NCBI GenBank assembly: GCA_002049455.2
Contig: KV918850.1
Location: forward strand, 1-64,000
Direction of reading: 5' to 3'
Source: Porphyra umbilicalis
Taxonomy: Eukaryota > Rhodophyta > Bangiophyceae > Bangiales > Bangiaceae
Length of the DNA stretch: 64,000 nucleotides
The position numbers and the translations under genes were made by a program. This document shows positions 36,092-64,000 of this stretch, piece after piece. Numbering within the stretch: the stretch's first letter is position 1; every line of letters starts with the position of its first letter. The notes beneath the pieces were generated by a model that worked only from the letters and a program-made list of their open reading frames with translations, did not search any database and was not told the origin of the DNA.

Positions 36092-36179
36092 GGATTGAGG
36101 CAAATCTTGCGAGCCGACGTGGATTACCGCGTGTGGCTGGTGCACGGCATACAGCTGGGTTGTTTCGCCTTGGGTGGCC

Positions 36180-39632: not shown

Positions 39633-39633
39633 T

Positions 39634-39715
39634 ACAGTGCGTTCTCGTTACAAGAGAATCGTTTACAAAAGAATATGGGTCGCGAGTCTTCACTGTGTGG
39701 CGGTATGAAATTCCC
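39634..39715. mobile_element. Fragment of a pogo/Tigger-like MITE
   Basis: Begins TACAGTGCGTTCTCGTTAC and aligns, as a reverse complement, with the right part of the MITE at 55041-55171 through ATGGGTCGCGAGTCTTC. The other end is missing. Confidence 0.6.
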
Positions 39716-40293
39716 GAGAAAAAGTGAGATCTTTTCTTTCATTATAAATAAGGAGGAGTTATTTCGGTTCGACCGCATCCAACTCTGCCGACTATCTTGC
39801 AGAAGATGCCTGAAAATGTGTCGAACAATCGCGAAGATTATCTTCCCAATCTGCTCGAGTCGTCCTGCAGATCGTATTTGGAACTTACCTGGTCCGATCT
39901 AACAATGAGACTTGTCTTGGATGGCGGATGGTCCTGAGATCAGACCAGGAACTGATTTCCAGATTGTTTCCAGGACTGTTCCGCAGCGTATCTCGTGGCA
40001 TGGCCACTGGACCAAACGACAAACAAATCCGTGCGCGCGTTCGACCGACTGGTCTAGCGTTCGAACAAGATCCGGTCTCCATCCTGTACCCGTAGAATGA
40101 GTACGCGGACGGGTTCCAGACTGTCTTCAGAGCCAGGCAACAGCCTCGACGAGAGATAACAGTGTCGTCACGCGATAAGCGCATACCCAGGATAAGTTCA
40201 GAACTACGTCGGTGCCCGACATGACAGACAAAGCACAGGGATAGCTGAGAACAAGTCCTGCAGATAAAGCAGCAGGACAGCCTTTGGAACGAT

Positions 40294-40690
40294 CCTGTCG
40301 ACAGTTATTGTTTTTATTCATCCGATCGCTTGATACTCTATCCGGAGATCTACCGCCTGGCATGTCAGCAGGACAGCCTTCGGAACGGTCCTGTCGACAG
40401 TTCGTATTTTTATTCATCCGATCGCTTCCTGCTTTTTCTGGAGATCTGCCGCCTGGCATGTCACCAGGACAGCCTTCGGAACGGTCCTGTCGACAGTTAT
40501 TATTTTTATTCATCAGACTGCTTCCTGCTTTATCTGGAGATCTGCCGCCTGGAATGTCACCAGGACAGCCTTCGAAACGGTCCTGTCGACAGGTAATATT
40601 TTTATTCATCAGACTGCTTCCTGCTTTATCTGGATATCTGCCGCCTGGAATATCGGGAGGACAGCTCTCGGAACGATCCTGTCGACAGTT
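40294..40690. repeat. 96-bp minisatellite, about four units
   Basis: The word CCTGTCGACAG recurs at 40294, 40390, 40486, 40582 and 40678, exactly 96 bp apart each time. As 96 is divisible by 3, the array is open on both strands. The plus strand reads a 32-residue unit with LFLFIR...LSGDLPPGMS; the minus strand reads MNKN..CRQDRSEGCPGDMPGGRSP. Neither looks like a known protein, so I annotate only the repeat. Confidence 0.9.
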
Positions 40691-41036
40691 GTTCTTTTTG
40701 TTCATCAGATGTGCCATGATCATGACGCTCATGTCTTCTCCACGACCATTCGTCAGAAAAAGCAAGGAAGATTATGTCAGAAAAAACAAGGCAGATTATG
40801 CCGGAAAAATGGATGGAAAAACGACAGAAACGAGGAAGAAAGGGACATGCATGGACAAAAAGACATAGAGGTCAAGAAAATGGGAGAAACAGACGACTCT
40901 GGATACCACAGAGGCCAAGACAACGGCAGCCACAACAGGTCACAGATCGCGTTCGCCTTCGTCGGCATGGAGCAGTCGTCCGTGTCAGCGCGGTGGATCA
41001 TATGAAACTCGCTTCAAGCAGACCGATAGGAGTGAG

Positions 41037-41669
41037 TTAGTCCGGTTCCTCGTCTGAGAGATCAACATCTCCAGCCTTGAGGTCCTTCAACTCATCCCGC
41101 ATGCACCGCACAACGCCCTTGCGAGCCTCGTGGCTCTCTGGTCGCAAAAATTTGGGGTACTCTGCCATGTCAACGTAGCTTTTCAGACAGGCGGCTCCGG
41201 CTGCTCGCACTGAGGTCCACACTTCGCTGGCGTCCAGAAACAAAAGCTCAGAAATGATGGCCGCCGCCGCTCCATTCATGTCAAGCGCGCGGACCAACTC
41301 GTTGTGGCCGTCCTTCAGTCTCAGTCGGTAACCAACGCCTGGATTCTCAGCTTGCGCGCTGCCGGCAGAGGCACCCGAAACGGCTGCAGCAAGCACCACG
41401 CGTTCCATGGACGCCTCCTGCACGTCATCGTCCATGTAAACTCCCAAGGTGCGATACGCGAGCAGCCGAGCAGAGGTGCGACGCCTGTTGCAGCGAGTAC
41501 GAAGACCCTTCTTCAGAGCCACTTTCACAGCACGTCGATGGCCCGACCAGCCACTTGTGGTGTAGTCAATCTGGTTCGCATACTTCTCAACCGCTTTGGT
41601 CATAACTGCTTGGAGAGGGCGAGTACAGTCTCTATTGGGGCCTTCCAGTTGTCCAGGGGGGCCAGCCAT
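41037..41669 (-). CDS. Conserved-looking protein of unknown function
   Basis: ATG 41669 gives 210 residues ending in an acidic tail (LKAGDVDLSDEEPD). The middle holds a basic stretch (KKGLRTRCNRRRTSARLL) and then helical, Ala/Leu-rich sequence (AAAAIISELLFLDASEVW, AAGAACLKSYVDMAEY) that could be ARM/HEAT-like, although I cannot place it. A second frame just upstream on the same strand (41600-41914, with VDVLHILLYQDDLSVLFSRY) looks coding too and may be its first exon or a frameshifted N-terminus. I found no splice pair that joins them in frame. Codon usage is more balanced than in the GC-rich shadow ORFs. Confidence 0.5.
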   Translation of the reverse strand: MAGPPGQLEGPNRDCTRPLQAVMTKAVEKYANQIDYTTSGWSGHRRAVKVALKKGLRTRCNRRRTSARLLAYRTLGVYMDDDVQEASMERVVLAAAVSGASAGSAQAENPGVGYRLRLKDGHNELVRALDMNGAAAAIISELLFLDASEVWTSVRAAGAACLKSYVDMAEYPKFLRPESHEARKGVVRCMRDELKDLKAGDVDLSDEEPD

Positions 41670-41919
41670 GAGAGGCAATTGTGTTCGGGCGAGTCGGCGG
41701 TGCTTCCATTCGTTCCGGGGCTCACAGTTCCATTGGAAATTTTCCTTAACATGGCCTGTGCGTATCGCGAAAAAAGAACACTCAGGTCATCCTGGTACAG
41801 CAAAATATGCAACACGTCGACAGCAAGGCACGAGTACGACGACGATGTGTACGGGTTAGACACGGTGCGATTCGTGGTACGATAGTAACAGATCGCGGAG
41901 CACCTCTCTCTCATACCAT

Positions 41920-42745
41920 GGGCCAAAAGCTATCAAGTCTAGTGGTCAACGTACTCCATGTGCAGTCCAGACACTAGCGAATAGGGCACCAATGACAACT
42001 GGGGATGGCGGCGGAGCATCAGGAGCTTCATCAGCCCCGCTACTCGGCATCACTTCGACGCGCAAGACGCCGTCTCGTTCAACGTTTGTCCGCGCAAAAG
42101 CGTCCTGGCGTCTCAGTCCAGGTGTGGGCTCCGCAACCCCGATAGTACATCAGTCAACGTGTGTCTTTTCCCAAGCACAACAGAGTCTCAGTGAAAGTAG
42201 GTCTCTGTGCAACCGTAACAGGGCCCCAGTCAACGGGTAGTACTCTGAGGAGCAGGGAAGAGAGTGCCACGACAACACGTTTGAGATCTGTCCAAGAGAG
42301 GACGTACGCACACAGCGCACTCAGCGGACCGGTTGGATGCAGACGGCGCTGGGCGGAGCTGCACCGCAGGTGATCTCCTGAGCAGGCACAGGTATCCGCA
42401 GGTGATCTCGTAAGCAGGCGCAGGTATCCTGGAACAGCCGGATACAGCGCGAGGGCGACGCAGGCTTCTGATCTGCTGCGGGAGATGAGGTTCGCCATGA
42501 CCATAAATGTACGTATTTCCCTTTGCGCGTAGTATTTATCACGAAGATTAGAAGCACACGTTGGTGCAAGGAGCCCATATGCTCTAGTCGAGCGGGCCGG
42601 TCGGGCGAGGCCGAGGATCCCGTACGTGCTGCATGCGTTAAGGTCGTACATTTCTGTTGTCGACGATGACCAGTACTTGATTTCACGCGCGGAATTGTTT
42701 GTGCATTGACCTACTATACTGTTGGAGATTGCGCAGCTTCCAATT
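41920..42745. repeat. No gene; includes a 32-bp direct repeat at 42365-42428
   Basis: GCAGGTGATCTCCTGAGCAG at 42365 recurs at 42397 with three differences. Nothing else is recognised in this interval. Confidence 0.5.
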
Positions 42746-42936
42746 CACCGGGCCGCGGCCGACGGGTGATCTCAGATCGGACGCCGCGCCCTCCACGCCG
42801 CGCCCAGATCGGGGTTCCGCACGTATCCGGTGCGGGACGGGTTCACCCGGCCGCGGCCAACGGGTGATCTCAGATCGAACGCCGCACCCTCCGCGCCGTG
42901 CCTAGATGGGAGTACCGCATGTATCCGGTGTGAGAC
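42746..42936. repeat. About 95-bp direct repeat, two copies
   Basis: The unit starting near CACCGGGCCGCGGCCGACGG recurs about 95 bp later (CACCCGGCCGCGGCCAACGG), each copy ending in TATCCGGTG..GACGGG. Confidence 0.8.
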
Positions 42937-43367
42937 GGGGCGAGAACGGCGTCCCAGGCAAACGCGCGACTGCCCCGGCCACGCCAGGTCGTGGCACGCT
43001 CCCCACGGACTGCCACGCCCGGTCGCGGCACGCACAGTACCCTCTGGCGAGCACAGTAGCGGCATGCACTGTATCCAGGGACCGTCACGCCCAGTCTCCG
43101 CCACCGACCAGCGCCGTCGCACTCGTGCCGTCACCGTGTCTGCACCACCACTCCTTCTCCTCCACAACTCATTTCTCCATCCCCTCCTCGCTCGTTTTTC
43201 TTTCCCCCTTCTCCATCCCCGTTCGTTGTTGCGCCCCCGGCTCCCCCCTTTCCCCCCTTGGTTTTTTTTTGGGCGCACCCGTGAGGAGGGAGGCCCGCTA
43301 CCCCACCGGAGGGTGCGGGCCAGGCCGCGACCGACCGCCCCTACGGGTGATCGGGTGTCCGTGAAGC

Positions 43368-43790
43368 CGCGGGCTGTGTCCCCCTTGTTGGGGCCACCCG
43401 CTGGTATTTTGGAGTGGCCGCCACACCGGGTGGGCGGTCTTCACTGTGTTTTCTCATTCGTCACCCCGCCGGTGGGTGCTTGTGGGACCGTTACCAATCG
43501 CCCATTAGGGCGAGTGGGACTGGGTGGTGCCGCGGGCTGTGTCCCTTTTCTGGGACCAACCGCTGGCTGTGCACGTCGCCGGCGCGCGAGCCGGGCCGGC
43601 TTGACTGTTCGATTTTCGCTCGCCACCTCGCCGGTGGGTGCGTGCGTAACTGGTGCCGATTGCCCACGCGGGCGATCGCTCTGTTGTGGTACCGCGGACT
43701 GTGTCCCTCTATCTGGGGCCAACCGCTGGGATTTACGAGTGGCCGCCACGCCGGGTGGGCGGTCTTCTTTGAGAATTTCGGTTTGTCTCT
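43368..43790. repeat. About 165-bp repeats (2.6 copies) directly upstream of an ORF
   Basis: The phrase CCGCGGGCTGTGTCCC occurs near 43368 and 43530 and, as CCGCGGACTGTGTCCC, near 43694. Each is followed by GGG(A/G)CCAxCCGCTGG, and the first and third copies also share GTGGCCGCCAC. The array ends about 20 bp before the ATG at 43810, so it may act as a 5' UTR or promoter, or be the subterminal repeat region of a transposon. Confidence 0.75.
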
Positions 43791-43809
43791 GTCCTCGTGA
43801 CAGCTGACT

Positions 43810-45423
43810 ATGGATGAGCACGTTGCCCCAGAGCCGCTTGGGCCTATTCCGGGCGAATTGAGTCGCAACCAGCGTCGTCAAGTGGCGCGCGCCCGGAAAC
43901 GGGCGGAGGCCATGACTGCTGAAGCTGCTCGGGTGGCTGAGCAAGCCGCCCGGGCTGTCAATGCTGCGCGTGCGGTCGAACGAGGTGCGGTTGCGGTGGC
44001 GCGACGGGCCGAGCACACTGCGGCACCGGCCCCATTGGCTCCCCTCGGCACCGGTCGCGAAATTGCGCCCGTGGCAGGTCGTGGCCGAGTTCGAGGCCGC
44101 GGCGGCGGTCGCGAGAGAGGCCGCGGCAGGGGCGACGCGGGCCCCAATCGACTCGGCGGGCGCTCACACGCGGTTAGACGCGGGGATGGTGGCGGATCGC
44201 GGCTCGAATCGGCTGCTGACAGTGCCTCAGCCGCTGTCGGGGGACATCAGCCCTCACCAGGCCTGAGCGGCAGCGGTCAGGTGGGCGCGTGCGGCGCGAC
44301 GCCCACGCCACGCAATCGCCAGCCGGGTGTCCGGCCCACCCGGTGGTATGGGCCGGCACCCGGTGGCGACCGGGCCCAGTCTGCATCGGAAGTGATCGCC
44401 ATCATCAACGATGGGCGGCGAGTTTTGACTGGTCGAGTGGGCGGGCTTACAGCCTCGCAGCTGCGGATGGTTCTCTCGGCCTTGGAACTCGCGGGACCTG
44501 ACTATCTTCCGAGCCTCGAACGGATGCAGATCCTGAGCCAGTGCCGTGCGGGCTGTGGCGACGTGGAGGCCATTGATTCGCTAATGGCTTCAGCTGTAAG
44601 GATATTGCAGAACGACGGCGGTGGTCCGCCGAGTCCTGCCGACACTACGGCCGCAAGCTTCCTTGTGAGGCAGGCTCTGGCGTCTCACGCATGCAAGGGC
44701 CAGTGCTTTGGGGGGGTGAAGCGCTCCCTCCCTCTTGCTTCCCGCCGAGCGCCGTCGCCCGCCCCATCTGCCGTCCTGCCTCCTGCTCCGATCCTCAACG
44801 CTAGAGCCTTGCCTCGTGCACCCCCCGCCAATGCACCGGCTGCGTCGAGCACGCGCCGGCGGCCGCCCGGGCGGCCACTCCCGCCTCCTGCGCAGCGCCT
44901 CCGCCGCACGACCAGCCACGATGGGGACCCCCAGTCGGTCGCAACTGTAACAACTTTTGCGCCGCCAACGCCGCGTGGTGCGCCGTCTTTGCCAATGGCG
45001 TCTGGAGCAAGCGATGGCCTGAACGCTCTGCCGGGAGCAGTGGAACCTGTCTTGCCGCTGTTTTTCTTTCCGGGGCGCGCCGAAAGGCGGCTCCAGCTGT
45101 CAACAGCGGATATCGGGTCGCTGGCAGAGGGCAAGGACATGTCCAAGCGCATGATGGATGGCATGCTGCTGTGGCTTTTACACTGGGCTGACAGCGGTGG
45201 AGTGCACGGTGGCCTCCGCGTTCTCTCCGCGCTCGACGCAGAGGACGTGAAGGACGCCGTGACTGATGACTGCCTGATCGTCAATAGGGCGGCCAAAGTG
45301 TTACTTGACCGCCTTGTGTTCGGGGGGGGCCGGTCATCATGCCAGTGCACAGCGGTCGGGGATGGTCGGGCTTGGTCGTGCGCCAACTCCATTTGGTCGT
45401 TTCCGCCGTCGTGCAGACCGTGA
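43810..45423 (+). CDS. RGG-rich hypothetical protein
   Basis: ATG 43810 gives 537 residues. The N-terminus has an Ala/Arg-rich helical stretch (RRQVARARKRAEAM, likely coiled coil), then an RG/RGG tract (GRGRVRGRGGGRERGRGRG) typical of RNA-binding proteins. A helical segment (about residues 195-260, SEVIAIINDGRRVL) is followed by a Pro/Ala-rich linker. Near the end LQLSTADIGSLAEGKDMSKR and LLWLLHWADSGG look ordered and vaguely resemble the region ahead of the catalytic core in Ulp1 proteases, but no His/Cys protease motif follows in any frame. The final about 25 residues overlap the next ORF in another frame. The family is unknown and the setting suggests a transposon gene. Confidence 0.55.
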   Translation: MDEHVAPEPLGPIPGELSRNQRRQVARARKRAEAMTAEAARVAEQAARAVNAARAVERGAVAVARRAEHTAAPAPLAPLGTGREIAPVAGRGRVRGRGGGRERGRGRGDAGPNRLGGRSHAVRRGDGGGSRLESAADSASAAVGGHQPSPGLSGSGQVGACGATPTPRNRQPGVRPTRWYGPAPGGDRAQSASEVIAIINDGRRVLTGRVGGLTASQLRMVLSALELAGPDYLPSLERMQILSQCRAGCGDVEAIDSLMASAVRILQNDGGGPPSPADTTAASFLVRQALASHACKGQCFGGVKRSLPLASRRAPSPAPSAVLPPAPILNARALPRAPPANAPAASSTRRRPPGRPLPPPAQRLRRTTSHDGDPQSVATVTTFAPPTPRGAPSLPMASGASDGLNALPGAVEPVLPLFFFPGRAERRLQLSTADIGSLAEGKDMSKRMMDGMLLWLLHWADSGGVHGGLRVLSALDAEDVKDAVTDDCLIVNRAAKVLLDRLVFGGGRSSCQCTAVGDGRAWSCANSIWSFPPSCRP

Positions 45424-46865
45424 TCGGTCGTGATGCAGCTCCCGTTCATGGCGCCGCAGTTGTGCTGATCAACACCTGCGAGACGAGGGGCGGCGCGCAA
45501 GTCGACTTTGACATTGTGGACGGCCTCTTCCGGTCGTTGAGTGCTGCGATTTGTCAAACCCACCTACGTACCAGGGACTCACTCAGAATGCGGATGCGTG
45601 TCAACGGGTGCCTGCGGATGCGTTTGCCAGTGCGCCGTGTGGCGATTCCCGGAGGAGAGGTTGCTGACACGGCGGACCACCTCCTGGCACACGTGTCTTT
45701 GCTGCATTCAGCCAAACCACAAGCAGCAGCAGACCTGCTACGTCGTGACAATGGGCCCCAATGGCAAAAGGCCCATGCCCCTCGGCGCTTGCGTGGCCTT
45801 GTTCGACGTATCGTGGACGCCCACCGACCCGGCGGAGAGATTTTTCTTGAGCAGGAGCCCGGCGAGGAGCTGTTGAGCGGCTACGATCTCTCGGAGGACG
45901 AGGCCGCCGACGGCGAAGAGGCGCTTAAAGACTTGACGGATGACGAAGACGGTTCCGGTGACAACAGTGCGCATAACGGCAGTCGCAAGGGCGACAGAAG
46001 TGGAGGAATGAGACGCAGTCAAGATGGTGACAGTGTCGGGGATGGCGGTGGTGGGATCGACAATCGCAACGGACGAGGCCCAGCTGACGGCGTCGAAAGC
46101 GGGTGTCGGACTGATGCGCATCTCGTGCTCGGAGGTTCCCCTCTGGGGCGTTCGAGAAACGTCCCTCGTGGGGGCATCGACGACGCACGGGGGCCTGGTG
46201 GCGGTACTGCTGCTACACACGCTCTTGGAGGCGCTGTGGTTAGTGTGCACGATCACGATCGACGCAACAATGGTGGATACAGGCGCCACAGGGAAGTGGA
46301 GGCACCGCTGGGTGGTGCCGGCGTTGATGCCCGCGCTCGTTCTGTCGCTGCCGGTGGTGTGGTTGCTCAAGATGGACGCGACAATGGCAGCGGTAATGCG
46401 GGTGAGGCACGGGGACTCGTCGGTGCAGGCGTTGATGCACGCGCTCGTGCTGGTGCTCCCGTCGGTGTGGCTGCTCGAGATGGGCGCGACAATGGTGGTG
46501 GTTGTGCAGCGGCGGTACGCGGACTTGGAGGTGCACGCATTGATGCACGCGCTAGTGGTCGTGGTGCCGCTGTTGTGTTTGCTCAAGCTGGGCGCGACGA
46601 TGGTGCTGGTGATGCAGCGGCGGTACGCGGGCTTGGAGATGCACGCGATGATGCACGTGCAGGTGCTGGTGGTGCCATGAATTGGTTGCTCAAGATGGAC
46701 CCGACGATTGTGGTGGTGGTGGAGTGGCGGTACCCAGACTTGGTGGTGCAGCCATTCATGCACGTGCTCGTGCTGGAGCTCCCGTTGGTGTGGTTGCTCA
46801 AGATGGACGCGACGATGGTGGCGATGGTGCAGCGGCGGTTCGTGGCTCGGTCGTGCACGCGATGA
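45339..46865 (+). CDS. Hypothetical protein with acidic segment running into 36-residue repeats
   Basis: ATG 45339 overlaps the end of the RGG ORF by 85 bp in another frame. The first about 180 residues look like real protein (VVLINTCETRGGAQVDFDIV, then ADHLLAHVSLLHSAKPQAAA), then comes an acidic tail-like segment (YDLSEDEAADGEEALKDL). From about residue 300 the frame enters the 108-bp minisatellite and reads a 36-residue unit of the type VVAQDGRDDGGxGAAVRGLGGAxxDARARAGAP. The frame later shifts within the array to a hydrophobic reading, so the native C-terminus is not determinable. The overlap with the previous ORF suggests a frameshift or splice joining the two. Confidence 0.4.
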   Translation: MPVHSGRGWSGLVVRQLHLVVSAVVQTVIGRDAAPVHGAAVVLINTCETRGGAQVDFDIVDGLFRSLSAAICQTHLRTRDSLRMRMRVNGCLRMRLPVRRVAIPGGEVADTADHLLAHVSLLHSAKPQAAADLLRRDNGPQWQKAHAPRRLRGLVRRIVDAHRPGGEIFLEQEPGEELLSGYDLSEDEAADGEEALKDLTDDEDGSGDNSAHNGSRKGDRSGGMRRSQDGDSVGDGGGGIDNRNGRGPADGVESGCRTDAHLVLGGSPLGRSRNVPRGGIDDARGPGGGTAATHALGGAVVSVHDHDRRNNGGYRRHREVEAPLGGAGVDARARSVAAGGVVAQDGRDNGSGNAGEARGLVGAGVDARARAGAPVGVAARDGRDNGGGCAAAVRGLGGARIDARASGRGAAVVFAQAGRDDGAGDAAAVRGLGDARDDARAGAGGAMNWLLKMDPTIVVVVEWRYPDLVVQPFMHVLVLELPLVWLLKMDATMVAMVQRRFVARSCTR

Positions 46866-48300
46866 TGCACACGCTCGTGCTGGTGCTCCCGTTGGTGTGG
46901 TTGCTCAAGATGGACCCGACGATGGTGGTGGTGGTGCATCGCCGGTACGTGAGCTTGGAGATGCACGCGTTAATGCACGTGCAGGTGCTGGTGGTGCTGA
47001 TGATGTGGTTGCTCAAGATGGACCCGACGATGGTGGTGATGGTCGAGTGGTGGTTCCCAGACTTGGTGGTGCAGCCATTCATGCACGTGTTCGTGCTGGT
47101 GCTCCCTTGGTGTGGTTGCTCAAGGTAGACCGACGATGGTGGCGATGGTGCAGCGGCGGTTCGTGGACTTGGTCGTGCACGCGATGATGCACACGCTCGT
47201 GCTGGTGCTCCCGTTGGATGTGGTTGCTCAAGATGGACCCGACGATGGTGGTGGTGTGGAGTGGCGGTACGCGGACTTGGTGATGCACAATTGGTGCACG
47301 CGGTCGTGGTCGTGGTGCCGATGATGTGGTTGCTCAAGATGGACGCGACGATGGTGGCGATGGTGCGGCGGCAGTACGCGGAATTGGTGGTGCAATCGTT
47401 GATGCACACGCTCGTGCTCGTGGTGCCGATGATGTGGTCGCTCATGATGAACGCGGCGATGGTCGCGATGGTGCAGAAGCGGTACCCAGACTTGGTGGTG
47501 CAGCCATTCATGCACGTGCTCGTGCTGGTGCTCCCATTGGTGTGGTTGCTCAAGATGGACGCGACGATGGTGGCGATGGTGCAGGGCGGTTCGTGGACTT
47601 GGTCGTGCACGCGATGATGCACACGCTCGGCTGGTGCTCCCGTTGGTGTGGTTGCTCAAGATGGACCCGACGATGGTGGTGGTGTTGGAGTGGCGGTACG
47701 CGGACTTGGTGATGCACACATTGGTGCACGCGGTCGTGGTCGTGCTGCCGATGTTGTGGTTGCTCAAGATGGACGCAACGATGGTGGTGGTGCTCAGTGG
47801 AGGTACAGAGACTTGGTGGTGCAGCCGTTCATGCACGTGCTCGTGCTGGTGCCCAGTTGGTGTGGTTGCTCAAGATGGTCGTGGCAATCGTGGAGGTGAT
47901 GCAGTGGATGCACGGAGACGTGGTTGTGCAAGCGTTGATGCACGTGCTCGTGCTAGTGCCCCGATGGTGTGGTTGCCCAAGGTGTACACGACAAGAATGG
48001 CGGTTGCGCAGTGGAGGTACCCGGACTTGATCATGCAGCCATTGATGCACGCGCTCGTGGTGGTGCTGCGGTTGGTGTTGTCGCTCAAGAGGGACCCGAA
48101 CATGGTGCCGGTGATGGAGTGGAGGCACGGGGACTCGTTGGTGCAGCCGTTGACGCCCGCGCTCGTGGTGGTGCTCTCGTTGGTGTTGTTGCACAAGACG
48201 GACGCGACAATGGTGGCGGTGGTGAAGTGCAATCACAAGGACGCGCTCGTGCTGCCGTTCACGCACGCGCTCGTGGTGGTGCTGCCGTTTGTATGGTGAC
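46250..48300. repeat. 108-bp coding-type minisatellite, about 19 units
   Basis: The word TGGTTGCTCAAGATGGA and close variants recur at intervals of 106-109 bp (for example 46683, 46791, 46898, 47006, 47113 and 47221), giving a modal unit of about 108 bp, or 36 codons. All six frames are open for long stretches. The hydrophilic plus frame (VAQDG.DDGG..AVRGLGGA..DARARAGAP) is preserved in several blocks with frame changes between them, as expected if unit-length changes and small indels occur. More diverged units continue toward 48600, just ahead of the JmjC gene. Confidence 0.85.
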
Positions 48301-48837
48301 TCGAGATCGACCCGACACTCGTGGTGAAGGACATGGCCAAGACAGCGGAGGCGGCGACGGTGGTCGGGTGCTTGAGCAAGACGGGCGTCGTCCCGCCGCC
48401 GCCGACGGCGGTGGTGATTTGCATGCACGAGGACTCACTGGCGATGCCGCCGATGCACAGGTTCTCGGTGGCGCTGCCGTTGGTATGTTACCTCATGTTC
48501 GACGCGACGATGGCGGTGCACGGCGTAACCCCGTTGAAGGGCCTAGCACAGGAGTCCGTGGCATTGCCGAAGGACCATGGTGTGGTGCCGCCGCGGGAGT
48601 CGGTCTTTTGGTCGGTGATCCTTTTTGCTGTGCGAGGCTCTCGCCTCACGGCGCGATGATCAGTTGTCTAGCTTTGATGCAGATGACATAAACGTCTTGG
48701 CCGGCACTCTCCCCTCAAACCACTTGGCCAGAGGAATTGAAGGAGTCCCTAGTGCAACGCTCGCACCGATACAGAGCATACAGAAGCCTGGGGCTGCCGG
48801 AAAAGACCCTACATCGCCAAAGAAACTCCACGAGCAC

Positions 48838-50722
48838 ATGCCGGGTACCAGCCGAGAAGGTCCTGACGCCACTGTTCGCAGGAAAGTTGCCATGGATGCG
48901 GGCGGGGAGCCCAAGGACGCACACGGTGGTGACAAAGTGTCTGCGCAAGTGCTTGGGTCTCCGACGCGACGTGCCAAGGATTTCTACTCCGTTCCTGTGA
49001 CTGAGTTACACTCTGTTCCTGAGTTGGGATTGCACGGACTGATTCGGTCGAATAGTGCATCATTCAGGCAATTTGGCGCGCACGTGTTCCGAATAGTAGC
49101 ACGCGAGAGGCGCCCCGTCTCTAGTCGACTGCCAAAGCGACATTCCGGGGACAAGCTCAGAGTGCGCGTTCAAACCTTTCCGCAGTTCCCTACCATTATG
49201 TGCGACTCATTCTCTGGTAGGCCTGCGCCTGACCTGAGCGTCAAGCGCAAAGACTTGAGGGCACAGCTGCCATCAGAAAGGGAAAAGCGAATGTCAGGTG
49301 CGGAACTCAGAGCCAAAGTCGGTGAGAGTGCAAACGCCCTTCAAGCCGCATACCGGGACTTCGGTGTGACGCGCTTCCTTGCCAGTGTGAACGATCCCAG
49401 CGCGACTTGGGTGCGACGAGTCACAGCTGCCGGCAAAGAGAGGGCCGTGATGGGTGGAGCCCTTGATCCCGTAGATGTGTACTATCTTTCAGACATGTCA
49501 CCTGACAACAAGGATGGGTGCAGTAGGAGTCTCGGCGACCCTGCGTGTACTGCCCATGCCGAGTCTTGCCCGCCTCGTCAGCGATTTGAGAACCCTCGCA
49601 CATTGAATCACCACACTATGCTCGGTGCAGCGTCCACATACGAAGGTATCAACACGAGCTTGCTGTACGTTGGGTCCCAAGGCTCTCACTTTAGCTGGCA
49701 CGTTGAGGACAGTCTGTTGCAATCATGTTCGTACTTGCAGGCCGGAGCGAGCAAGTTTTGGCGGTTCATTCCGGCGTCGGAACGCCCTCTCGCCGAGCGC
49801 GTGATGCGAGAGCTTATGGACCCGGTTGTATTGGAAGCGGCCGGAGGTGACGTATGGACAGTTCTTGCTGTAAAGGCGTGCTTGTGGCCTGCAACGCTCT
49901 TTCTGGCTCGTGGTGTACGAGTTGGATTCCACAAGATGGAGCCTGGGGACTTTGTTGTCACGGGTTACGGCGTCCTTCACAGCGGCTTCAATGGGGGACC
50001 AAACGTGGCCTCCGCCGTAACACTGCCTGCACAGCCAGGTTTTCTTACGCGATGGAACACGCTGAGCACTGGCGCAATAAGCTGACTATCCACATCCCTT
50101 TTGAAAGCTGCTGGTGCTTGCGGCCCAGAAGCTCGCTGCTGGGGAATGGTGGTGCGGCGACGCGAAGACGTATCAGGCGTTAGAGCCAGAACAGTTCCAA
50201 CGGGATATCAAAGTCATGGTGTCTTACCTAGGAAAGTACCTTGACGATACGCAGGCTTTTTTGGAGATGGGACCAGACACAGACTGGGCTGGCAGGAAGG
50301 CCACCATCGTCGACATGATGCGGGCGTCCATGGGCGTGACGAAGTTTATCGTGCACAACTACATACAGCCGAAAGGGACACCCTTGGTGCTGCCCAATGA
50401 GGATACGGGATCAGTCACAGACTATTCAGTTGATGGCACGTCTTGCCCTCATTGCGGTGTAGTCGTTTGGCTCTCGGTCATTGTCTGCCCAACGTGCATT
50501 GAACAGCTAGGAGAAGAAGCTGGACCTACTGCTCCTCTGTGCTGTCTGCGCTGCGCACCGACCATGTTCGGGAGCGAGCACGATCGACTTCGCCAGGGCT
50601 CTCCGGCGCAGAGGCGTCTCATGGGTTGCCATGCTCCGGTGGTGGTGCAGCGGCTCTCGAACAGCTCCGTGTACCTCTTGGTGGATGAATTGAAGAAGCT
50701 GTCAGTGGGACGTTCTGCATGA
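48838..50722 (+). CDS. JmjC-domain dioxygenase with C5HC2 zinc finger (histone lysine demethylase-like), two exons
   Basis: The first in-frame ATG is 48838, although the frame is open back to about 48625. The JmjC core lies near residues 260-390: Fe(II) ligands His288 and Glu290 in FSWHVEDS and His381 in LHSGFNGGPN, and a 2-oxoglutarate-binding Lys306 in AGASKFWRFIP, so all catalytic positions are present. I propose a 112-bp intron at 50017-50128 (GTAACA ... GCGGCCCAG, branch-like CTGAC). It joins NVASA to KLAAGEWWCGD in phase 0 and restores the family pattern NxAEAxNxAxxxWxxxG. Exon 2 carries a C5HC2-like finger (CPHCGVVVWLSVIVCPTC, then CCLRCAP), the arrangement seen in KDM5- and plant KDM4-type demethylases. 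AATAAA follows at about 50952. The gene is convergent with the transposase (255 bp apart) and has similar, lower GC, suggesting one mobile unit. Confidence 0.8.
50017..50128 (+). other. Predicted spliceosomal intron of the JmjC gene
   Basis: GT-AG intron of 112 nt. The donor is GCC|GTAACA, a branch-like CTGAC lies about 40 nt before the acceptor CGGCCCAG|AAG, and the phase is 0. It is supported because only this removal keeps both the JmjC end and the zinc-finger exon in one frame with the expected motif spacing. Confidence 0.7.
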
Positions 50723-50976
50723 GCGATGTCATTTGTGTTTTTTCTATGCTTCTTGCTTTTGGCTTCTCCATGCGCACTATGTATGTTTCTTCGTACTGCC
50801 TCACGTTGCTGGCTGTCACACATAGGCTGTTGTAATATTCATCAACTTCTTCTCATTTGCTCTTGAGTCCATCGTAGGTCCCTTGCTCGTTGTTTTTGGT
50901 GCAGTACAGTATTCAAACCATGAGCCGAGTCCGACGTACACGTCAGAGAGGAATAAAATACACAAGTCACTCTCAG

Positions 50977-53951
50977 TCACCCGCTCTTAAAGTGGAAGCC
51001 CGAACGTTTGGTAAACATGACATTACGCTGCCCACAAGGAAGCACAAATGCCAATTGGCCGACGCGGTCGGCAGTGACAATGGTAACATCAGCTGCTACG
51101 TCAACAGCGACGACAGCCGGCTCGCCCAAGACGGAGAAGGCCATGTGCGGTACACGCCATGGCTCGTAGGCAACGTAAAGCTCGCCGTTGACGGTTGCAA
51201 TGGAGTGGACGCGACCAAAGCGCTTGTGGTTCATGTCACTCGTTCCAGAGCCATGCTCTTCAGGTACAATGTCAACAATGGACACTGTGGACCCTTCTGC
51301 GATAATAATCGATCGCTCTTTCCTCGCGGCCTTCCGCCAAAGTGTGAGGGCCGCGTTGGGCGCATGGCGCTTCCAAACATCTTCTTTGGGCCCCAAGAGC
51401 GTGCGCACAGCGTGCATGGCACGCCAAGCATCATTGACTGTGGCCGCATTACCTCTGCTCGGACCCAGGCTGTAGAAAGAGACGGCCTTCAGCTTCTTGC
51501 CTCGTCTACCAATGAGCCATGAAGCGGGTATTCCATATTCGCCTGGCAAAGATAGCACTCGGGAGTACTGTTCTGTGTCTCTCCACCTCTGTATGGCATA
51601 CTCAGCGGGGTTCCAGCTGTTGCTCTGGCTCACCTCACGCTTTGCCAGCTGGTGAAACCTCTCAAAATGAGCTCACATATGGCCGGCCCGAGCTGCACCA
51701 GCGGGAGAGTGCGATACAAGAGCTCTAGTAAACGGTGCACAGATGGTCGCTCCCACGACCCGTTGAATGGCACCAGCCGACGCAGTTCAATCATCAGACT
51801 CTCGCCCAAGACTTGGAGCTCAGCGACAGTGGGCCTCGTTCGCACGGCCTCCTCGCCATCCGAGGCAGCTGTTGGGAGGTAGAAAAGTGCGGTAGAGAAC
51901 CGTCGGAGGGCATGAAGAGCACTGAGTGCGGCAACTGCGTGTGGCGATGTGGCTGTAGGATGGACCAAGTACTGCAGCACAGTCGGGCCCACCGTGAGCA
52001 GCACTGCATAGTCTGACATTGAGAGGGTTGTGCCACCCATCTTTTCGGGTTCGAACGACGACAAGACTGTGTGTGTCGGGACATACTTCGCACAGCGACG
52101 CATCTGCTTTGTGAATGAGTCCCGTTGCTCTACTGATAAGGCATCGTAGGCTTCCATTAAAAGGTTTGACCCGATGTTGTAGTAGAGTAGGTGTGAGGGA
52201 GCGACAACCACATGCTCGTGTATGTCGAAACTCCCGGGACCCCGTGCCTCTTCAAGACGCATGATCAGGCTGCCGGACTTATCGGATATGCATTAAGAAG
52301 CAGTGCATCCTTCACGGATTCCGCAGACAGCTGTGGGGAGCTCTTCACGGCCGACATGATAAGCGCAGTCCGCTCTTGCGTTCGAGAGTAGCGAGAGTCC
52401 TTAACGTCAAAAGAGGTCGTGCTGCTCATGGCTCGCTCTTTCCGAGCTGTCGTGGTCTTCAATTGGACAATGTCGCAGCTAGTGCAGTGCTCTATGCCTG
52501 GGGCACCGACCGAGTTGGAAAACTTTGCAGCCATAGGGAAATCAAAGAGAACAAGACACAGGTACACACGATCTACCACGTTCTGCTGTTTGAAGGCATC
52601 GTACACGTGAACACCTTCCTTACTCGCGAGGAGTACGTCTTCCACCACGCGCTTGAGAAGTGCGTCCGGGTTGGCTCCTGGTGGCAAATAAAACCGTGGA
52701 CGAACAGAAAACGCACGATCCTTGATGCTGAGAGATGTGTATGCTCCATAGTAGCCCTCCAGGCTTCCCCGTCGACGCTTGTATACGTTGAATGCATCAC
52801 CGTACAATGAAACGTATAGCGTGTAGGGGTCTTTTTCCGGGAGAGCACACTCCGGGGGCTCTGCCGCCTGCAAGAGCTCCAGTGGCGGCAGTGACAATAA
52901 GGCGGACCACGAGTCTTGTTCCATCATGGCTGATGCTTTCACGACAAGAACCAGTACGCCACCGGACCGCGCGAACCGCAAAGTAAACCTGCGTTCTTCG
53001 GTGAAGCATGGTGCCCAGCTCGCGGGCGGTACGACATCAGGAAAAGCAGAAAACTGCGCGAGGGAGTCCCCAAGTCGAAGCGCGCTCTGGGGAACATACG
53101 TGGACGCGGATGTGGTAAAGCTGCCGTCACAAGCAATGGCTGTGCTCATCAGACTGGCCTTGACCGTCGTAGCTGCATCAAGAGAGACCTGGGCGATACA
53201 TCCAATGTCGTACCTGTACCGGTCTCGGAACAGGACGTTCTTCACGTTATACCTCGCGGGATCCCTGGCCACTACAGTCTGATAAAGCTCTGCAGGCCGC
53301 TCAGCTGTGCCCATGCACGATTCCCCTTTACTGTGGAAAACAGCAGCCGTCTTGGGATCTCCAACGTCCCGCTTTACGTGCTCAGAGAAAGGAATGTACG
53401 ACATGATTGCGTCAGGCAGTTTTCGGAAGGCTCTTCCTTTGCCAACGGGAAGCTGACGTGCGGTCGTTTCTCTTCGCAGTGGTATGGCAGACTTCAGCAT
53501 GTGCTTGCGCAACTGCCGTAAGCGCCACCTCGAGGGCCACTCCTCCTGCGGGATAAAGGAGTTCGCGGCCTCTCGCATCATGTCATACTGTCTGAGCGTC
53601 ACGCGCACTCGCCCATAGAGGTACCCAAAACATAAGAACTCGCGACGTGTTGCAAACCCCTCATCAGGGTGCTCAGATGCACTCGAAAATTCTGTGTCGT
53701 CTGATGGGTAAGCGTCTGACTCAGATTCGGATGACAGGGCGACGTCGTCGTACTCCTCTATATGGGACACTCGTGGTATCGCTCTGCCAGGGATAGGTTC
53801 GGGTCTGCCTGCCGAGCCCCCACCGTCGCCTTCACGGCCGACATCATGCTCTGCAGAATCCGAGTTCGTGGGATGTGCTTGCAAATGAATCAGGTTGGCA
53901 TCAGTGAGATTGAAAAACGCAGAACCTCGTGGCGCGGCTGCGACGCTTCAT
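50977..53951 (-). pseudogene. Tnp2/KDZ/Plavaka-type (CACTA-like) DDE transposase with three single-base frame breaks
   Basis: About 980 residues are spread over shifting frames. The start is ATG 53951 (MKRRSRATRFCVF), matching the N-terminus of the paralogue at 62706. Conserved parts in order: an acidic N-terminal region (SESESDAYPSDDTEF), FGYLYGRVRVTLRQYDMMR, WPSRWRLRQLRKHM, the likely catalytic-domain block LYVSLYGDAFNVYKRRRG..YYGAY, then DFPMAAKFSNSVGAPGIEHC..CD (the family's GxxGxxxCxxC region), SHLLYYNIGSNLL, and FERFHQLAKRE, the hallmark ExxHQxxK. The frame changes near 53920 (a T run), 52285 and 51668 (a T run); each is a 1-nt indel. They may be decay or assembly errors. A Tnp2-like enzyme would bind element ends and cut DNA in the nucleus. 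Confidence 0.8.
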
Positions 53952-54670
53952 GGCGACCAGGAAAGGGGGCCCGTGCGTGCGTAGCACAGTATCCGACACT
54001 GCACGTTAATACCACATAGGCACGCCCTTAGGAGCACCAAGAGGGACACAGCCGAGGACCTGTTTGACGGGGATACACAGCGAGATCAAGGGCCCAAGGC
54101 ACAGGACGGCACGATGCGACTGCGGTGTGGCACCTCAAGTATCGACGGAGGCTCACCTCAGTGTACCTATGGCGAGGGAGGCTCTGATCTGCTGATCGGC
54201 ACGAGCTGGAGCTGCTCGGCAGATTCCCGGCTCGGACACTCTGCACCGATCCCCCTCTCTGACAATAGGAAAGCTACGAAGGACACGTCCTTCAAGGTGG
54301 ACCACCGGCGGACGGCTTCCGTGCGCTCATTGGCCAGCCATTTCTAGCCTTCCCAGCGACCAAGGCGCCGATTGGTTTTCCATTTGATCCGGCAGACCAT
54401 CTGCGGAACAGTCCTCCAGTGATCCTCGTTTGATCTCAAGGATGATCCTCAGTAAAGTCCGAACGCCACCGTCGGGACTGTTTCCAGGACGGTCTTGCGT
54501 CATAGATCTCGCCCTATCCTATTCTACGTTTGAGATTAGGCCAGGACGGTCCACCGGAAAACCCTGGGGAGTTCCTCCACTTGATCTGATGATCACTGGG
54601 GGACGATCCCAATTTCGCGTCACGCCGACCTCCAGAATCGATGTAGCTGCGTGAGCAAATCGGGCCGCAG
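53952..54670. other. Upstream flank of the transposase; no gene
   Basis: This should contain the promoter and possibly the terminal inverted repeat of the transposase element, but I could not find a convincing terminal repeat matching the left side. From 54400 to 54600 short words such as CAGGACGGTC recur loosely. Confidence 0.4.
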
Positions 54671-54671
54671 G

Positions 54672-54814
54672 CCTTTACTGTGAATTCCTCGATTTTGTGG
54701 CTAGGATTAAATAAGGACGAGCATCCGTCTCCCTGTGTTCCATTCCAGTCCGTGTGGGCCACTTATTCTTCATATTGAGCCGAATCAGCTGTCCCTTATA
54801 ACGAGAACGCACTG
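54672..54814. mobile_element. Pogo/Tigger-like MITE inserted in a 633-bp-family fragment
   Basis: The right end TTATAACGAGAACGCACTG matches the ends of the element at 55041 and is followed by TA and then by GCCCC.. sequence of the 633-bp family, as expected for insertion at TA. The left end near 54672 (TTTACTGTGAATTCCTCG) is only loosely similar, so the left boundary is approximate. Confidence 0.45.
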
Positions 54815-54893
54815 TAGCCCCTTGTGAAGAAAACGTGATTTGGGACACCCCTCATCGAAGCACAGCACATGAGCTTTGGCGTTGCAAACCTGT
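54815..54893. mobile_element. Fragment of the 633-bp TIR family
   Basis: TGGGACACCCCTCATCGAAG and GAGCTTTGGCGTTGCAAACC align with the interior of the copy at 34527-35159 (about 34841-34925). Both termini are missing. Confidence 0.75.
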
Positions 54894-55040
54894 AAGAGCA
54901 TTGTTAACAATGAGATGCTATCCCCATATTCAAGCCACGTTGCACAACGTGTCCCATTAAGCACCTGAAGTCCGACGTAACACCACTTTTTAGACGAAGA
55001 AGCCCTTTTTTTGTTCGGGCCATGGAAATCGAACTACCGA

Positions 55041-55171
55041 CAGTGCGTTCTCGTTAGAAGAGACAGCTGATTCGGCTCAATATGAAGAAAAAGTGACCCA
55101 CACGGACTGGAATGGAAGACTCGCGACCCATATTCTTTTACAAACGATTCTCTTGTAACGAGAATGCACTG
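55041..55171. mobile_element. 131-bp pogo/Tigger-like MITE
   Basis: The ends CAGTGCGTTCTCGTTA and TAACGAGAATGCACTG pair with one mismatch, and TA follows the right end. The CAGTG...TCGTTA terminal pattern is typical of pogo/Tigger families. There is no coding capacity. Related fragments lie at 39634 and 54672. Confidence 0.75.
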
Positions 55172-55265
55172 TATTACAGTCTCCCCAATTTTGGCCGACT
55201 TTTTCGACTGGCGCCATGGTTCAGCTCAGCACCCCCGCCACTCTTGCCACCAACAAGTCCATTAG

Positions 55266-60648: not shown

Positions 60649-61776
60649 GCGAATGTGCAGGCGCCGGTTGTTGCGCACTGTCTTTTGCACCCACGCAGTC
60701 GCTCGCTGGTTCTTCAACAAGCATCATCGAGCGCACGTTTGCGCTTCTCTTAGCTCTGTTGATGCATTGTTGTTCCTGATACCAAAAGAAGGCGCGGTTC
60801 GCGGAAAACAACCTCGGAGGGTGTCACCCTCGAAATGGAGCAAGGGGAGCGCCACTGAGAAACACAAAAGACAACATGAGCAACGCGAGCCACCCCGTGC
60901 AAGTGCGCCACGGTATTGCCTGCAGAGCATCACCCCCGCCATACTCGCCTGGACCTTCCCTCCCGCCCTGCCGCCACCGTCGCCTGCGCCCACGCCGCCA
61001 CCCATGCGGGTTGGCGGCACCCCCACTCACCCCGTTGCCTTCGTGCGCCCCCACCCGGTCGGACACCCCCTCCCTCGCAACGCCCGCGCCAAGTCCATCG
61101 GTGCATCGAGCAGTAGCGGTCGAGCCACAGCCGCCGTCGCGCCGCTGGCCGCCCTCCTCCGAGGGGTGGACCGCTCGCCGACGGACCCCTGTTCGCCCGA
61201 CATGCTCGTTTCGGTTACGGCCCGCGGACCGCGCGCCGACGGCCGTGGCAGAAGGCGACCGCCGGCACCGCAGCCAACGCGGTGGCCGGCGCGGCGTCAC
61301 GCCCCCCGCCTTTCGCTCGTAGGCTCGTAGGCGGGAAAGAGACGCGCTGCCGCCGGCTCACTCACCTGCGCGGAGCTCGTGTCCCTGCGCAGTGCACCTC
61401 GTTGCTGGCTCCACCACGAGCCCGTTTTTCCCTCGCATTCCTCGTAAACGCTCGTTGAAAATGGGTGTTTCCTCGCACGCTAAGAGTGTTTGCTCCTGTC
61501 CCGTCCAAAAAACTCGTTCAGGCGTGTTGGCGACATGATTAGGACGTCATTACGAGCGTTATGAAGTCCGTTCAAATGCTTCCAAGTGCGACTTGATGCG
61601 CTAAACGGGTGCCTTGTTCAATACACAGCGAGATGGAGCCGCTTCCTTAAATAATTCTGACCCTAAAATAGAATTTACCGAAGGACAATTCACGGGATTG
61701 ACCTCGATCAGTTGCCGGATTGTCGACAGCAGATGTTTGGGCGGACACGAAGACTGTCCCAGGTTGTGTTTGGGAC
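60649..61776. other. No gene supported; GC-rich
   Basis: The first about 100 bp match the 3' flank of the other NB-ARC gene (GCGAATGTGCAGGCGCCGGT and the CACCCACGCAGTCGCTCGCTGG word), so the duplication included 3' sequence. From 60900 to 61330 Pro/Arg-rich shadow ORFs occur on both strands. Confidence 0.5.
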
Positions 61777-62221
61777 TATTGCTGATCCCCCAATTCTGTC
61801 CTCATCGCCCCGGAACAGTAGTGGAACGGCAATGAATGCAGATCTCTCATTGGTCGAGCAGTCCGACAGCAGTGCATGTCCGGCCCGATCTTTACAGAAT
61901 GTGCCCATACGGCCCCCAATCGCACAATCGACGCCTTCGTTTTTCTGCACTTTTCTGCGTATCTCCCAGAAAATCTCGATATCCCAACGATTGCGGGCCG
62001 GTTGCTCCCTTGACACGGAAGGGATCGGAAGAAATTCTCAAAAAAAAGAAGGATCCCGGTTCTGCACGGAAGTGGCGGTGGGAGAGCCAATAGGACGTCT
62101 CAGATTTGTGCTGAGCAGCTGTTTACGGCTGCGTTTAACCAATAGATGGCCAGTTCCACAAGAACCGTACCGCCAGGAACCGTTCCTGGTCCATGAGGAC
62201 AGAATTGGGGGATCAGCAATA
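61777..62221. mobile_element. 445-bp TIR element with 29-bp perfect ends
   Basis: The left end 61777-61805 starts TATTGCTGATCCCCCAATTC and is the exact reverse complement of 62193-62221. There is no coding capacity. A truncated relative lies upstream of the first NB-ARC gene (35774-36091), and the two share the internal AGAATGTGCCC(A/G)TACGG and GGAGAGCCAAT words. The outer TA would suit a Tc1/mariner-like element. Confidence 0.85.
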
Positions 62222-62705
62222 TCAAGACGATGGTCATGAGGAATTACCTGGATGGATCGGCTCGCCCTGATCCTCAGACACACATGAGATGGCCCAGCAG
62301 ATAGTTTTTGGAGGTGTTCCTCGGAACTAACTTCAACCAATCGGCAAACGGTCCGTCGGACCGTTCGACGGACAGCTCCTGGGACGGTTCGTCGAAGTTG
62401 TCTGCTGGAAATGTTGGGCAAGATGTTTTAGGAGTGCGGTCCTGAACCCATTCAGGTGGGCTCCTTGGATGACGATGAACTCGTTTGCTCAGGCGCACAT
62501 CCTGCGGATACGTGTAATCATAAAAGATTCCTGGCATCACACGGGTCCGAGAGTTCCCTCGCTTCATATGTAAGCAATTGCTTGCAGTGCTCTTGCCCAT
62601 GTCTGCTCTCTGTCCCCCCTTCCGCACCAGCAGGTCACCCCGTCCGCGGTCCGGTTTCTGGCACCGTCAGGGAGAGCACCTGTCGTCTTGATCGGAGCTA
62701 CGGAC
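62222..62705. other. Upstream flank of the second transposase
   Basis: No gene. A run of short GGAC/GTCC inverted words lies around 62340-62400 (GGTCCGTCGGACCGTTCGACGG). It may contain the promoter or an end of the transposase element. Confidence 0.4.
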
Positions 62706-64000
62706 ATGAACGGATCAAAGAGACGCAAGCGTGGACCTCGTGCGTCGTCGTACTTTTGCTTTGAGGTTGACGACCCTGTGCCTGTGCCTCGTCACTCGGT
62801 GGGACAAGCGTCTGCTGATGTGAGCGCCCCTGCAGGCTCACGCGCTTCGTTGCCTCACGCTGGTGGCGGCGCTGAGATTAGTGGATCGAGTTCTGGGAGT
62901 GACGATGACTTGGAACAGGATATCCGTCACGTGCACCCTCTCATGGTTCCTCCCGTGCTTCCTTCCGGCGGTGATGACGTGGACGTAGACGAAAGCGGGT
63001 GTAGTCCATCCGCATCAACGACCGACACAGAGTTCTCCAGTATGTCAATGGAGGACAGCGTAAACTTTTCTTCTCGACGGGAGCTACTCTGCTACGGGTA
63101 TCTGTATGGACGTGCACGGTTGTCAACAAGACAGTACGACATTATGCGTAGCGTAGAGAACTCTTTCTCGTCCGCAGAGAGATGGCCATCCAGATGGCGT
63201 CGGCAGCAAGTGAGAAGAAAGCTCCTGCTCGCAGCCGCACCTGTGAGGAAGCAGATTACATCCAGGCAGTTCCCGTCGGGCAAAGGAAAGTCACCAAGGA
63301 CGCTTCTTGACGTTGTCGTTCCGTACACAACGTTTTCAGAACATGTGAGGCGAGACTTCGCCGATTCTTTGACAGCCGCCATATTTCATCATGAGGGTGA
63401 CGCATTGGTTGGGACAACAGATAGCCCAACAGAGTTCTTCCAGACAGTTGCGGCGACCGATCCTGGGCGCTATAACTTTCGGCGTCAGATTAGGCTGGAA
63501 GGCAGAATCTACGCACTCGGAGACATTGTCAGTATGGCAATATCGGCGTCGGTGAGGCTCAAGGCCGTGCTACAGAGTACGGAGATAGCAACAGACGGCG
63601 AAGTGTCTTTGTCACCATCAGAGTATGCCTCCGGTGACGCTCTGCGGGTCGGAGACTTGACTGCCACGCTTATGCTGACAGCAGACTCGGCTCGACCGGC
63701 GCTGTTATCCTCATGCTTGACGGGAAACGGGACTTTTACGGCGCGATTCACCAGGTGCGGGACCATACATGCGATGCGCGTTCTGGGTTGCCAGCGGGGA
63801 GCGCCTACAGCTTGGAACGCTGTATCCTCCGTGTCTAGTATGAAGGTGGACGTGGCTGTTGTCAGGGAAGGAGCGCAGCTCGTGCCGAAGGATCCGTACA
63901 AGATCTGTGTCTCGTGGTATGGAGACCAGTACGGCACCATGAAGCGTCGACGGGGTGATGTTGAGGGGCACTACGGTGCATACACATCTGTCTCACTTGC
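62706..64000 (+). CDS. Tnp2/KDZ-type transposase N-terminal part; open to the right edge
   Basis: ATG 62706 opens 431 codons without a stop to the end of the window. The start has a nuclear-type basic cluster (GSKRRKRGPRASSYFCF), then an acidic Ser/Asp-rich region (SGSSSGSDDDLEQD). From residue about 120 it aligns throughout with the minus-strand transposase at 50977-53951: CYGYLYGRARLSTRQYDIMR against FGYLYGRVRVTLRQYDMMR, RWPSRWRRQQVRRKL, TFSEHVRRDF, and the block SWYGDQYGTMKRRRGDVEGH with YGAYTSVS at the edge. Identity is moderate, so this is a diverged family member rather than a recent copy. No frame break is seen in the visible part, so it could be functional. The C-terminal half with the ExxHQxxK motif should lie in the next about 1.6 kb outside the window. 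Confidence 0.8.
   Translation, partial: MNGSKRRKRGPRASSYFCFEVDDPVPVPRHSVGQASADVSAPAGSRASLPHAGGGAEISGSSSGSDDDLEQDIRHVHPLMVPPVLPSGGDDVDVDESGCSPSASTTDTEFSSMSMEDSVNFSSRRELLCYGYLYGRARLSTRQYDIMRSVENSFSSAERWPSRWRRQQVRRKLLLAAAPVRKQITSRQFPSGKGKSPRTLLDVVVPYTTFSEHVRRDFADSLTAAIFHHEGDALVGTTDSPTEFFQTVAATDPGRYNFRRQIRLEGRIYALGDIVSMAISASVRLKAVLQSTEIATDGEVSLSPSEYASGDALRVGDLTATLMLTADSARPALLSSCLTGNGTFTARFTRCGTIHAMRVLGCQRGAPTAWNAVSSVSSMKVDVAVVREGAQLVPKDPYKICVSWYGDQYGTMKRRRGDVEGHYGAYTSVSL

What the first reader, a model, noticed from the sequence alone, without database searches (positions are those of the whole stretch)
48625..53951. JmjC histone-demethylase-like gene convergent with a Tnp2/KDZ-type transposase: a possible transposon that carries its own chromatin modifier
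Seen: a JmjC protein with intact Fe and 2-oxoglutarate residues plus a C5HC2-like finger on the plus strand, 255 bp tail-to-tail with a transposase on the minus strand, both in a block of lower GC than the NB-ARC genes. Known: in fungi, KDZ transposons are associated with TET/JBP dioxygenase genes, a different branch of 2-oxoglutarate enzymes. Inference: here a JmjC demethylase may be cargo that lifts repressive histone marks from the element or its target, which would be a new pairing. A chance insertion next to a host gene is the main alternative.
Basis: partly seen in the sequence, partly recalled or inferred. Interest (0 to 1): 0.9.

Follow-up and report, generated by a model that had tools for sequence, protein, structure and literature searches.

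The report
Transposon carrying a histone demethylase gene
A mobile DNA element with dozens of copies in the genome of what is likely a red alga carries, beside its transposase gene, a gene with a JmjC histone-demethylase domain that evolves under purifying selection, and its protein likely strips silencing marks from the element so that it can keep moving.

Summary
The JmjC and Tnp2 genes are not chance neighbours: they are the two recognisable genes of one 15,047-bp transposon (39,691-54,737) with ends CACTGTG...CCCTGTG and a TT target duplication, inserted into a small repeat whose unbroken twin lies about 300 bp past its right end. In the same 83.8-Mb assembly 85 of 105 JmjC-domain hits have this transposase within 6 kb, all 85 convergent; of 67 Tnp2 hits of the other class none has a JmjC within 6 kb. 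Between families both genes show purifying selection (dN/dS 0.12-0.21 and 0.09-0.18), the trees share 7 of 9 splits, and four insertions are 99-100% identical over 5.8 kb. Intact copies encode a ~2,000-2,570-codon protein: conserved N-terminus, in-frame repeats, then a JmjC module modelling on KDM5/JMJ14/JMJ13 catalytic domains, Fe and 2-oxoglutarate residues kept. The window copy is frameshifted in both genes. The transposase is CACTA-like (CMC), not KDZ. Escape from silencing is inferred; the mark is unknown, H3K27me3 my best guess. Transposon-borne TET/JBP and SET genes are published; I saw no JmjC case in ten library searches.

The parts
39691..54737 (+). whole transposon, 15,047 bp (oriented with the JmjC gene on +)
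   Evidence: left edge shared by 8 of 10 fetched copies, right edge by 14 of 14 same-family copies; flanks and duplications
39689..39690 (.). left copy of the TT target duplication
54738..54739 (.). right copy of the TT target duplication
39691..39697 (+). left terminus CACTGTG
54731..54737 (+). right terminus CCCTGTG
40270..40710 (.). subterminal tandem repeat, 96-bp unit, 4.6 copies
43801..45420 (+). N-terminal part of the JmjC gene (first part of a conserved ~700-residue region; match starts at 43,810)
   Evidence: 57% to copy C16
45309..46862 (+). continuation of the conserved N-terminal region in another frame (matched 45,324-45,977), running into the repeats
   Evidence: 67% to copy C16
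46311..48316 (+). tandem array, 108-bp unit, in frame with JmjC in intact copies
48619..50085 (+). JmjC ORF (JmjC domain 49,663-50,019)
50105..50722 (+). C-terminal part of the JmjC gene with the Cys cluster, in another frame in this copy
50977..53947 (-). Tnp2-type transposase gene, broken into three overlapping frames in this copy
39633..39690 (.). left piece of the small repeat into which the element inserted
54738..54815 (.). right piece of that small repeat
55040..55173 (.). unbroken inverted copy of the same repeat (natural empty-site control)
61624..64000 (-). start of a second, diverged element of the same kind, running off the window; transposase ORF 62,574-63,998 on +, JmjC partner at C90:66,822-67,181 on -

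Best explanation
The JmjC gene and the transposase gene belong to one CACTA-like DNA transposon, and the JmjC protein is predicted to be a histone demethylase that likely removes silencing methyl marks (most likely H3K27me3) from the element, which would keep its genes expressible and its DNA open for cut-and-paste. Shown by sequence: one unit with shared ends and 2-bp target duplications, recurrent convergent pairing, recent multiplication, purifying selection on both genes, near-parallel trees, and conserved Fe(II) and 2-oxoglutarate residues in a KDM5/JMJ14/JMJ13-like module. Inferred: catalysis, substrate, action on the element's own chromatin, and capture of the gene from a host demethylase like the one on contig C344. 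The window copy is a decayed one.
Against: No enzyme, chromatin or expression data. KDM5 and JMJ14, equally good fold matches, are tied in the PDB titles to H3K4me3, not a repressive mark. Some copies have lost a metal ligand (F1_C98 His to Asp, F1_C46 His to Leu; metagenome P0011 His to Gln). 22 of 109 transposase loci lack a JmjC within 6 kb, one (C582) with a long open frame. Two of four F3 copies lack a matching duplication. JmjN and C5HC2 were not detected by Pfam. Most dS values exceed 1. The host and its silencing marks are not identified.
Confidence: 0.62

Rival explanations
1. The JmjC protein is a KDM5-type H3K4me3 demethylase that damps the element or its surroundings: a self-limiting or chromatin-closing gene, not an escape gene.
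For: The fold model matches JMJ14 and JMJ703 (solved with H3K4me3 substrates) and KDM5A-C best.
Against: By sequence the nearest solved protein is JMJ13, solved with H3K27me3. A gene that only lowers the element's activity is harder to keep under purifying selection at the level of the transposase; that argument is inference.
Confidence: 0.16
2. The JmjC protein acts in transposition itself or in target choice: it binds histone tails or DNA (through the long repeats) as a partner of the transposase, its enzyme activity being secondary.
For: Huge repeat array and conserved N-terminus next to the JmjC module; joint descent with the transposase.
Against: Metal and cofactor residues are conserved in representatives of all ten families, which pure binding would not need.
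Confidence: 0.14
3. The JmjC domain is an oxygenase for another substrate (another protein, RNA or DNA base).
For: JmjC proteins include such enzymes (recalled); no substrate was tested here.
Against: Sequence and model match lysine demethylases over JmjC and the region after it.
Confidence: 0.05
4. Chance insertion beside a host JmjC gene, or passive cargo without a role.
For: A related host-like JmjC gene exists on contig C344 (hhalign E 1.5e-38 over JmjC and Cys cluster), so passive capture is possible; JmjC-less copies occur (22 of 109).
Against: Chance would give about 0.014 transposase per JmjC hit against 85 of 105 seen. Purifying selection and near-parallel trees across ten families.
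Confidence: 0.03

Closest known systems
TET/JBP-bearing DNA transposons of fungi (EnSpm, Plavaka, KDZ, hAT, Helitron and others; Kojima 2025, PMC12730594; abstract, introduction, section 3.1.5 and search passages read)
   Same: Cut-and-paste transposons with a second gene for a 2-oxoglutarate dioxygenase aimed at an epigenetic mark; the EnSpm ones share 5'-CAC..GTG-3' ends
   Different: There a TET/JBP enzyme acting on DNA methylcytosine; here a JmjC module of histone-demethylase type inside a 2,000-2,570-codon protein; 2-bp instead of 3-bp duplications; alga-like host instead of fungi
Transposons with SET histone methyltransferase genes in Phytophthora (Harbinger, MuDR; cited in the introduction of PMC12730594)
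   Same: A transposon carries a histone-modifying enzyme gene
   Different: A writer instead of an eraser; other transposon superfamilies
VANDAL elements and their VANC anti-silencing proteins in Arabidopsis (abstract start of PMC10398659 in a search listing)
   Same: A transposon gene beside the transposase counteracts epigenetic silencing
   Different: VANC is described as a sequence-specific anti-silencing protein of a Mutator-type element; no JmjC domain is mentioned there
KDM5/JMJ14/JMJ703/JMJ13 JmjC demethylases
   Different: Transposon-encoded in dozens of copies, fused to a new N-terminus and repeats, 18-24% identity to the solved proteins
CACTA/EnSpm and the wider CMC group of transposons
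   Same: CAC..GTG ends, Tnp2-type transposase, acidic residues, C(2)C and mostly H(3)H
   Different: 2-bp duplication, very long JmjC partner gene, intron-free frames in intact copies

Membership tests
CMC group (CACTA/EnSpm-Mirage-Chapaev) transposons | 5'-CAC..GTG-3' ends (given for EnSpm in PMC12730594) | tested here: met
   CACTGTG...CCCTGTG in the window; CACTGCG...CTCGCTGTG in F3 copies C20, C27 and C101
[quoted passage not shown]
   C(2)C in 19 of 19 rows, H(3)H in 13 of 17 rows with letters, first D 19 of 19, second D 18 of 19, E 17 of 17; that these acids are the catalytic ones is by motif, not tested
Canonical EnSpm (as in PMC12730594) | 3-bp target duplication | tested here: not met
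   2-bp duplication in 8 of 10 copies with both ends read; hence filed under CMC, not canonical EnSpm
Tnp2 transposase family PF02992 | score above the Pfam cut-off | tested here: inconclusive
   window 25.9 and C16 26.6 bits against 28.6; other copies of the lineage reach up to 37.6
KDZ transposons | 8-bp target duplication (Zisupton, per PMC12730594) | tested here: not met
   2 bp
TET/JBP-bearing transposons | TET/JBP dioxygenase gene | tested here: not met
   the dioxygenase matches PF02373 JmjC and solved JmjC demethylases
JmjC histone lysine demethylases | Fe(II) ligands HxD/E..H and cofactor Lys | tested here: met
   present in representatives of ten families; lost in single copies F1_C98 and F1_C46 and in P0011
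KDM5/JMJ14-type subgroup | JmjN domain and C5HC2 finger around JmjC | tested here: inconclusive
   model aligns with JMJ14 from residue 14 to 593 and a Cys cluster is conserved, but Pfam detects neither domain
KDM5 proper | PHD and ARID domains | tested here: not met
   no Pfam match in the two parts of the C16 protein that were scanned, 933 N-terminal and 733 C-terminal codons of 2,570
JmjC histone lysine demethylases | removes methyl groups from histone lysine | not testable with these tools
   needs an enzyme assay

The most novel reading that the evidence does not exclude
A whole lineage of CACTA-like transposons has made a histone demethylase its second core gene: the element brings its own eraser of Polycomb-type silencing marks, passes it on together with its transposase, and has fought a chromatin arms race with its host through at least ten families. 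It would be the first known transposon lineage that carries a histone-mark eraser.
Probability: 0.5. Interest if true: 0.92.

Novelty: new variant of a known kind. Interest (0 to 1): 0.83.

Why it matters
Transposons that carry DNA-demethylase-type genes are known in fungi. Here the same kind of strategy appears with a different enzyme class that would act on histones, in a distant lineage. If true, carrying an eraser of silencing arose more than once, and the question of which histone marks restrain transposons in early-branching algae becomes directly testable. It also offers a large natural set of diverging JmjC enzymes.

Tried and rejected
Chance adjacency: rejected by genome-wide pairing. 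KDZ label: rejected by 2-bp duplications and CAC..GTG ends. Single host JmjC gene at this site: rejected, the gene is repeated with the element. Viral origin: one scan of viral contigs with the JmjC protein gave no relative; nothing else was scanned for it. Naming the organism by assembly size in papers led nowhere. Light-harvesting genes hint at a red alga (10 PF00504 matches; for the two translated and compared, the best solved match was 7y5e, which I recall as Porphyridium). The transposase model was too poor to use (mean pLDDT 47.6) and was not searched. Rfam and tRNA scans of the window gave nothing. Metagenome relatives exist (12 JmjC-side and 13 transposase-side proteins), none named; P0005 (JmjC) and P0019 (transposase) both list a longest contig of 12,285 bases, so they probably lie on one contig. 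The resemblance of the 36-codon repeats to known repeat proteins was not tested.

Not in print: ten library searches (of these 39 and 54 were partly or wholly about the organism and 85 about H3K27me3) showed no JmjC-bearing transposon among the rows listed. Several lists were cut (20 of 41; 44: 20 of 52; 45: 20 of 1,395; 54: 15 of 37; 85: 8 of 30; 90: 12 of 812), and subscription papers and Repbase reports are mostly not held, so an earlier record is possible. Papers opened: PMC12730594 (outline, abstract, introduction, section 3.1.5, passages; 'JmjC' and 'Jumonji' occur 0 times), PMC5405695 (passages), PMC8616336 (passages).

Full report
What is in the window. The JmjC and Tnp2 signals are real (PF02373 E 6.9e-14; PF02992 E 6.6e-6, slightly under its cut-off). 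The two genes end 255 bp apart, tail to tail. In this copy both are broken: the C-terminal JmjC part is read in three frames and the transposase in three, and the N-terminal JmjC part lies in two further ORFs.

They are one mobile element. The window's assembly (G000, 83.8 Mb, 665 contigs) gave 89 matches to the JmjC ORF and 82 to the transposase ORF, both lower bounds. Copies share sharp edges. Of ten fetched left stretches, eight begin matching at window 39,690 or 39,691; the other two (C80, C559) start further in. All 14 same-family right ends besides the window's stop at 54,736-54,740, and 3 of 5 copies of a second family stop at 54,737-54,738. The ends read CACTGTG and CCCTGTG. A 2-bp duplication flanks 6 of 6 copies of the window's family whose two ends I had read (TT, AA, CA, CA, GA, TC). 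In family F3 it flanks 2 of 4 (C20 and C27 yes; C16 and C101 no). In the window, the flanks joined with a single TT align without a break to a second, inverted copy of the same small repeat at 55,040-55,173: a natural empty site.

Pairing is the rule. Of 105 PF02373 hits, 85 have this transposase within 6 kb and all 85 are convergent, median gap 2,284 bp. Of the 20 unpaired hits, 8 are family loci, 3 look like host genes (C263, C30, C344) and 9 are unclassified. Of 109 merged transposase loci, 87 have a JmjC within 6 kb and 22 do not; one of the 22 (C582) has a long open frame, and one (C95) is a copy with an internal deletion that removes the JmjC domain. The other class of Tnp2 hits (67 of 136 PF02992 hits, profile start 15-35) has a JmjC within 6 kb in 0 of 67. 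The association therefore belongs to one transposase lineage. A second, diverged element begins at 61,624 in the same window and continues past its end.

It has moved recently, and both genes are selected. Copies on C16, C20, C27 and C101 are 99-100% identical over 5.8 kb and end in different flanks; C391 matches C16 through the flank as well and may be the same insertion assembled twice. Copy C16 has an uninterrupted 2,570-codon JmjC frame and a 986-codon transposase frame; by the frame lengths, copies at C27:397021, C15:472294, C62, C87 and C288 also look intact in both. Between families dN/dS (NG86) is 0.116-0.211 for JmjC and 0.086-0.178 for the transposase in seven pairs. An eighth pair (F8/F10) gave 0.276 for JmjC and was saturated for the transposase. 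Within family F1, two pairs gave 0.49-0.56 and 0.88-1.04, as expected for copies that decay after insertion. Five of the seven dS values exceed 1 for each gene, so the ratios are rough. The two trees (12 copies, 10 families) share 7 of 9 splits, and the distances correlate at 0.985 with no permutation of 5,000 as high; they differ in where families F4-F7 and the long branches join.

How it likely works (inferred). Cut-and-paste elements are commonly restrained by repressive chromatin. In the one red alga for which I read data, H3K27me3 lies on half of the repetitive elements and goes with low expression (PMC5405695, passages). JMJ13, the nearest solved relative by sequence, was solved with an H3K27me3 peptide (title). 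I commit to removal of H3K27me3 from the element, at moderate confidence. JMJ14 and JMJ703 were solved with H3K4me3 substrates, and that rival is open.

Known versus new. Fungal DNA transposons of eleven lineages carry TET/JBP genes, and Phytophthora transposons carry SET genes (PMC12730594). The strategy is therefore known; the enzyme class, the kind of host and the giant joined protein are new as far as my searches show. By ends and motifs the transposase sits with the CMC group; its 2-bp duplication differs from canonical EnSpm (3 bp) and from Zisupton (8 bp).

Limits. Counts are lower bounds from a search that reads no introns. The organism is not identified; light-harvesting genes suggest a red alga. 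There are no expression data, and nothing here tests catalysis.

Noticed in passing
36,099-39,014 and 56,621-60,253: Two NB-ARC plus TPR ORFs flank the element; the stretches 36.4-39.1 kb and 57,989-60,755 are 84% identical, so the element sits between paralogues.
   Followed up: partly
61,624-64,000 and C90:66,822-67,181: A second, diverged element of the same kind starts in this window; its far end and target duplication were not read.
   Followed up: partly
34,527-35,160: An unrelated repeat with dozens of near-copies (about 95% identical) genome-wide, partly in inverted pairs.
   Followed up: no
21,549-23,624: Reverse transcriptase, RNase H and integrase domains in one ORF: an LTR-retrotransposon fragment.
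   Followed up: no
39,633-39,690, 54,738-54,815 and 55,040-55,173: Two inverted copies of a ~134-bp repeat with ACAGTGC..GCACTGT ends, resembling a small Tc1/mariner-type MITE (resemblance recalled); one is split by the transposon.
   Followed up: partly
L029 (C95 copy): A copy with an internal deletion (window 48,555-51,528 missing) that removes the JmjC domain: a possible non-autonomous derivative.
   Followed up: no
46,311-48,316; L020; L051-L052: Repeat units in the JmjC gene are 108, 153 or 162 nt in different copies, always a multiple of three; their role is unknown.
   Followed up: partly
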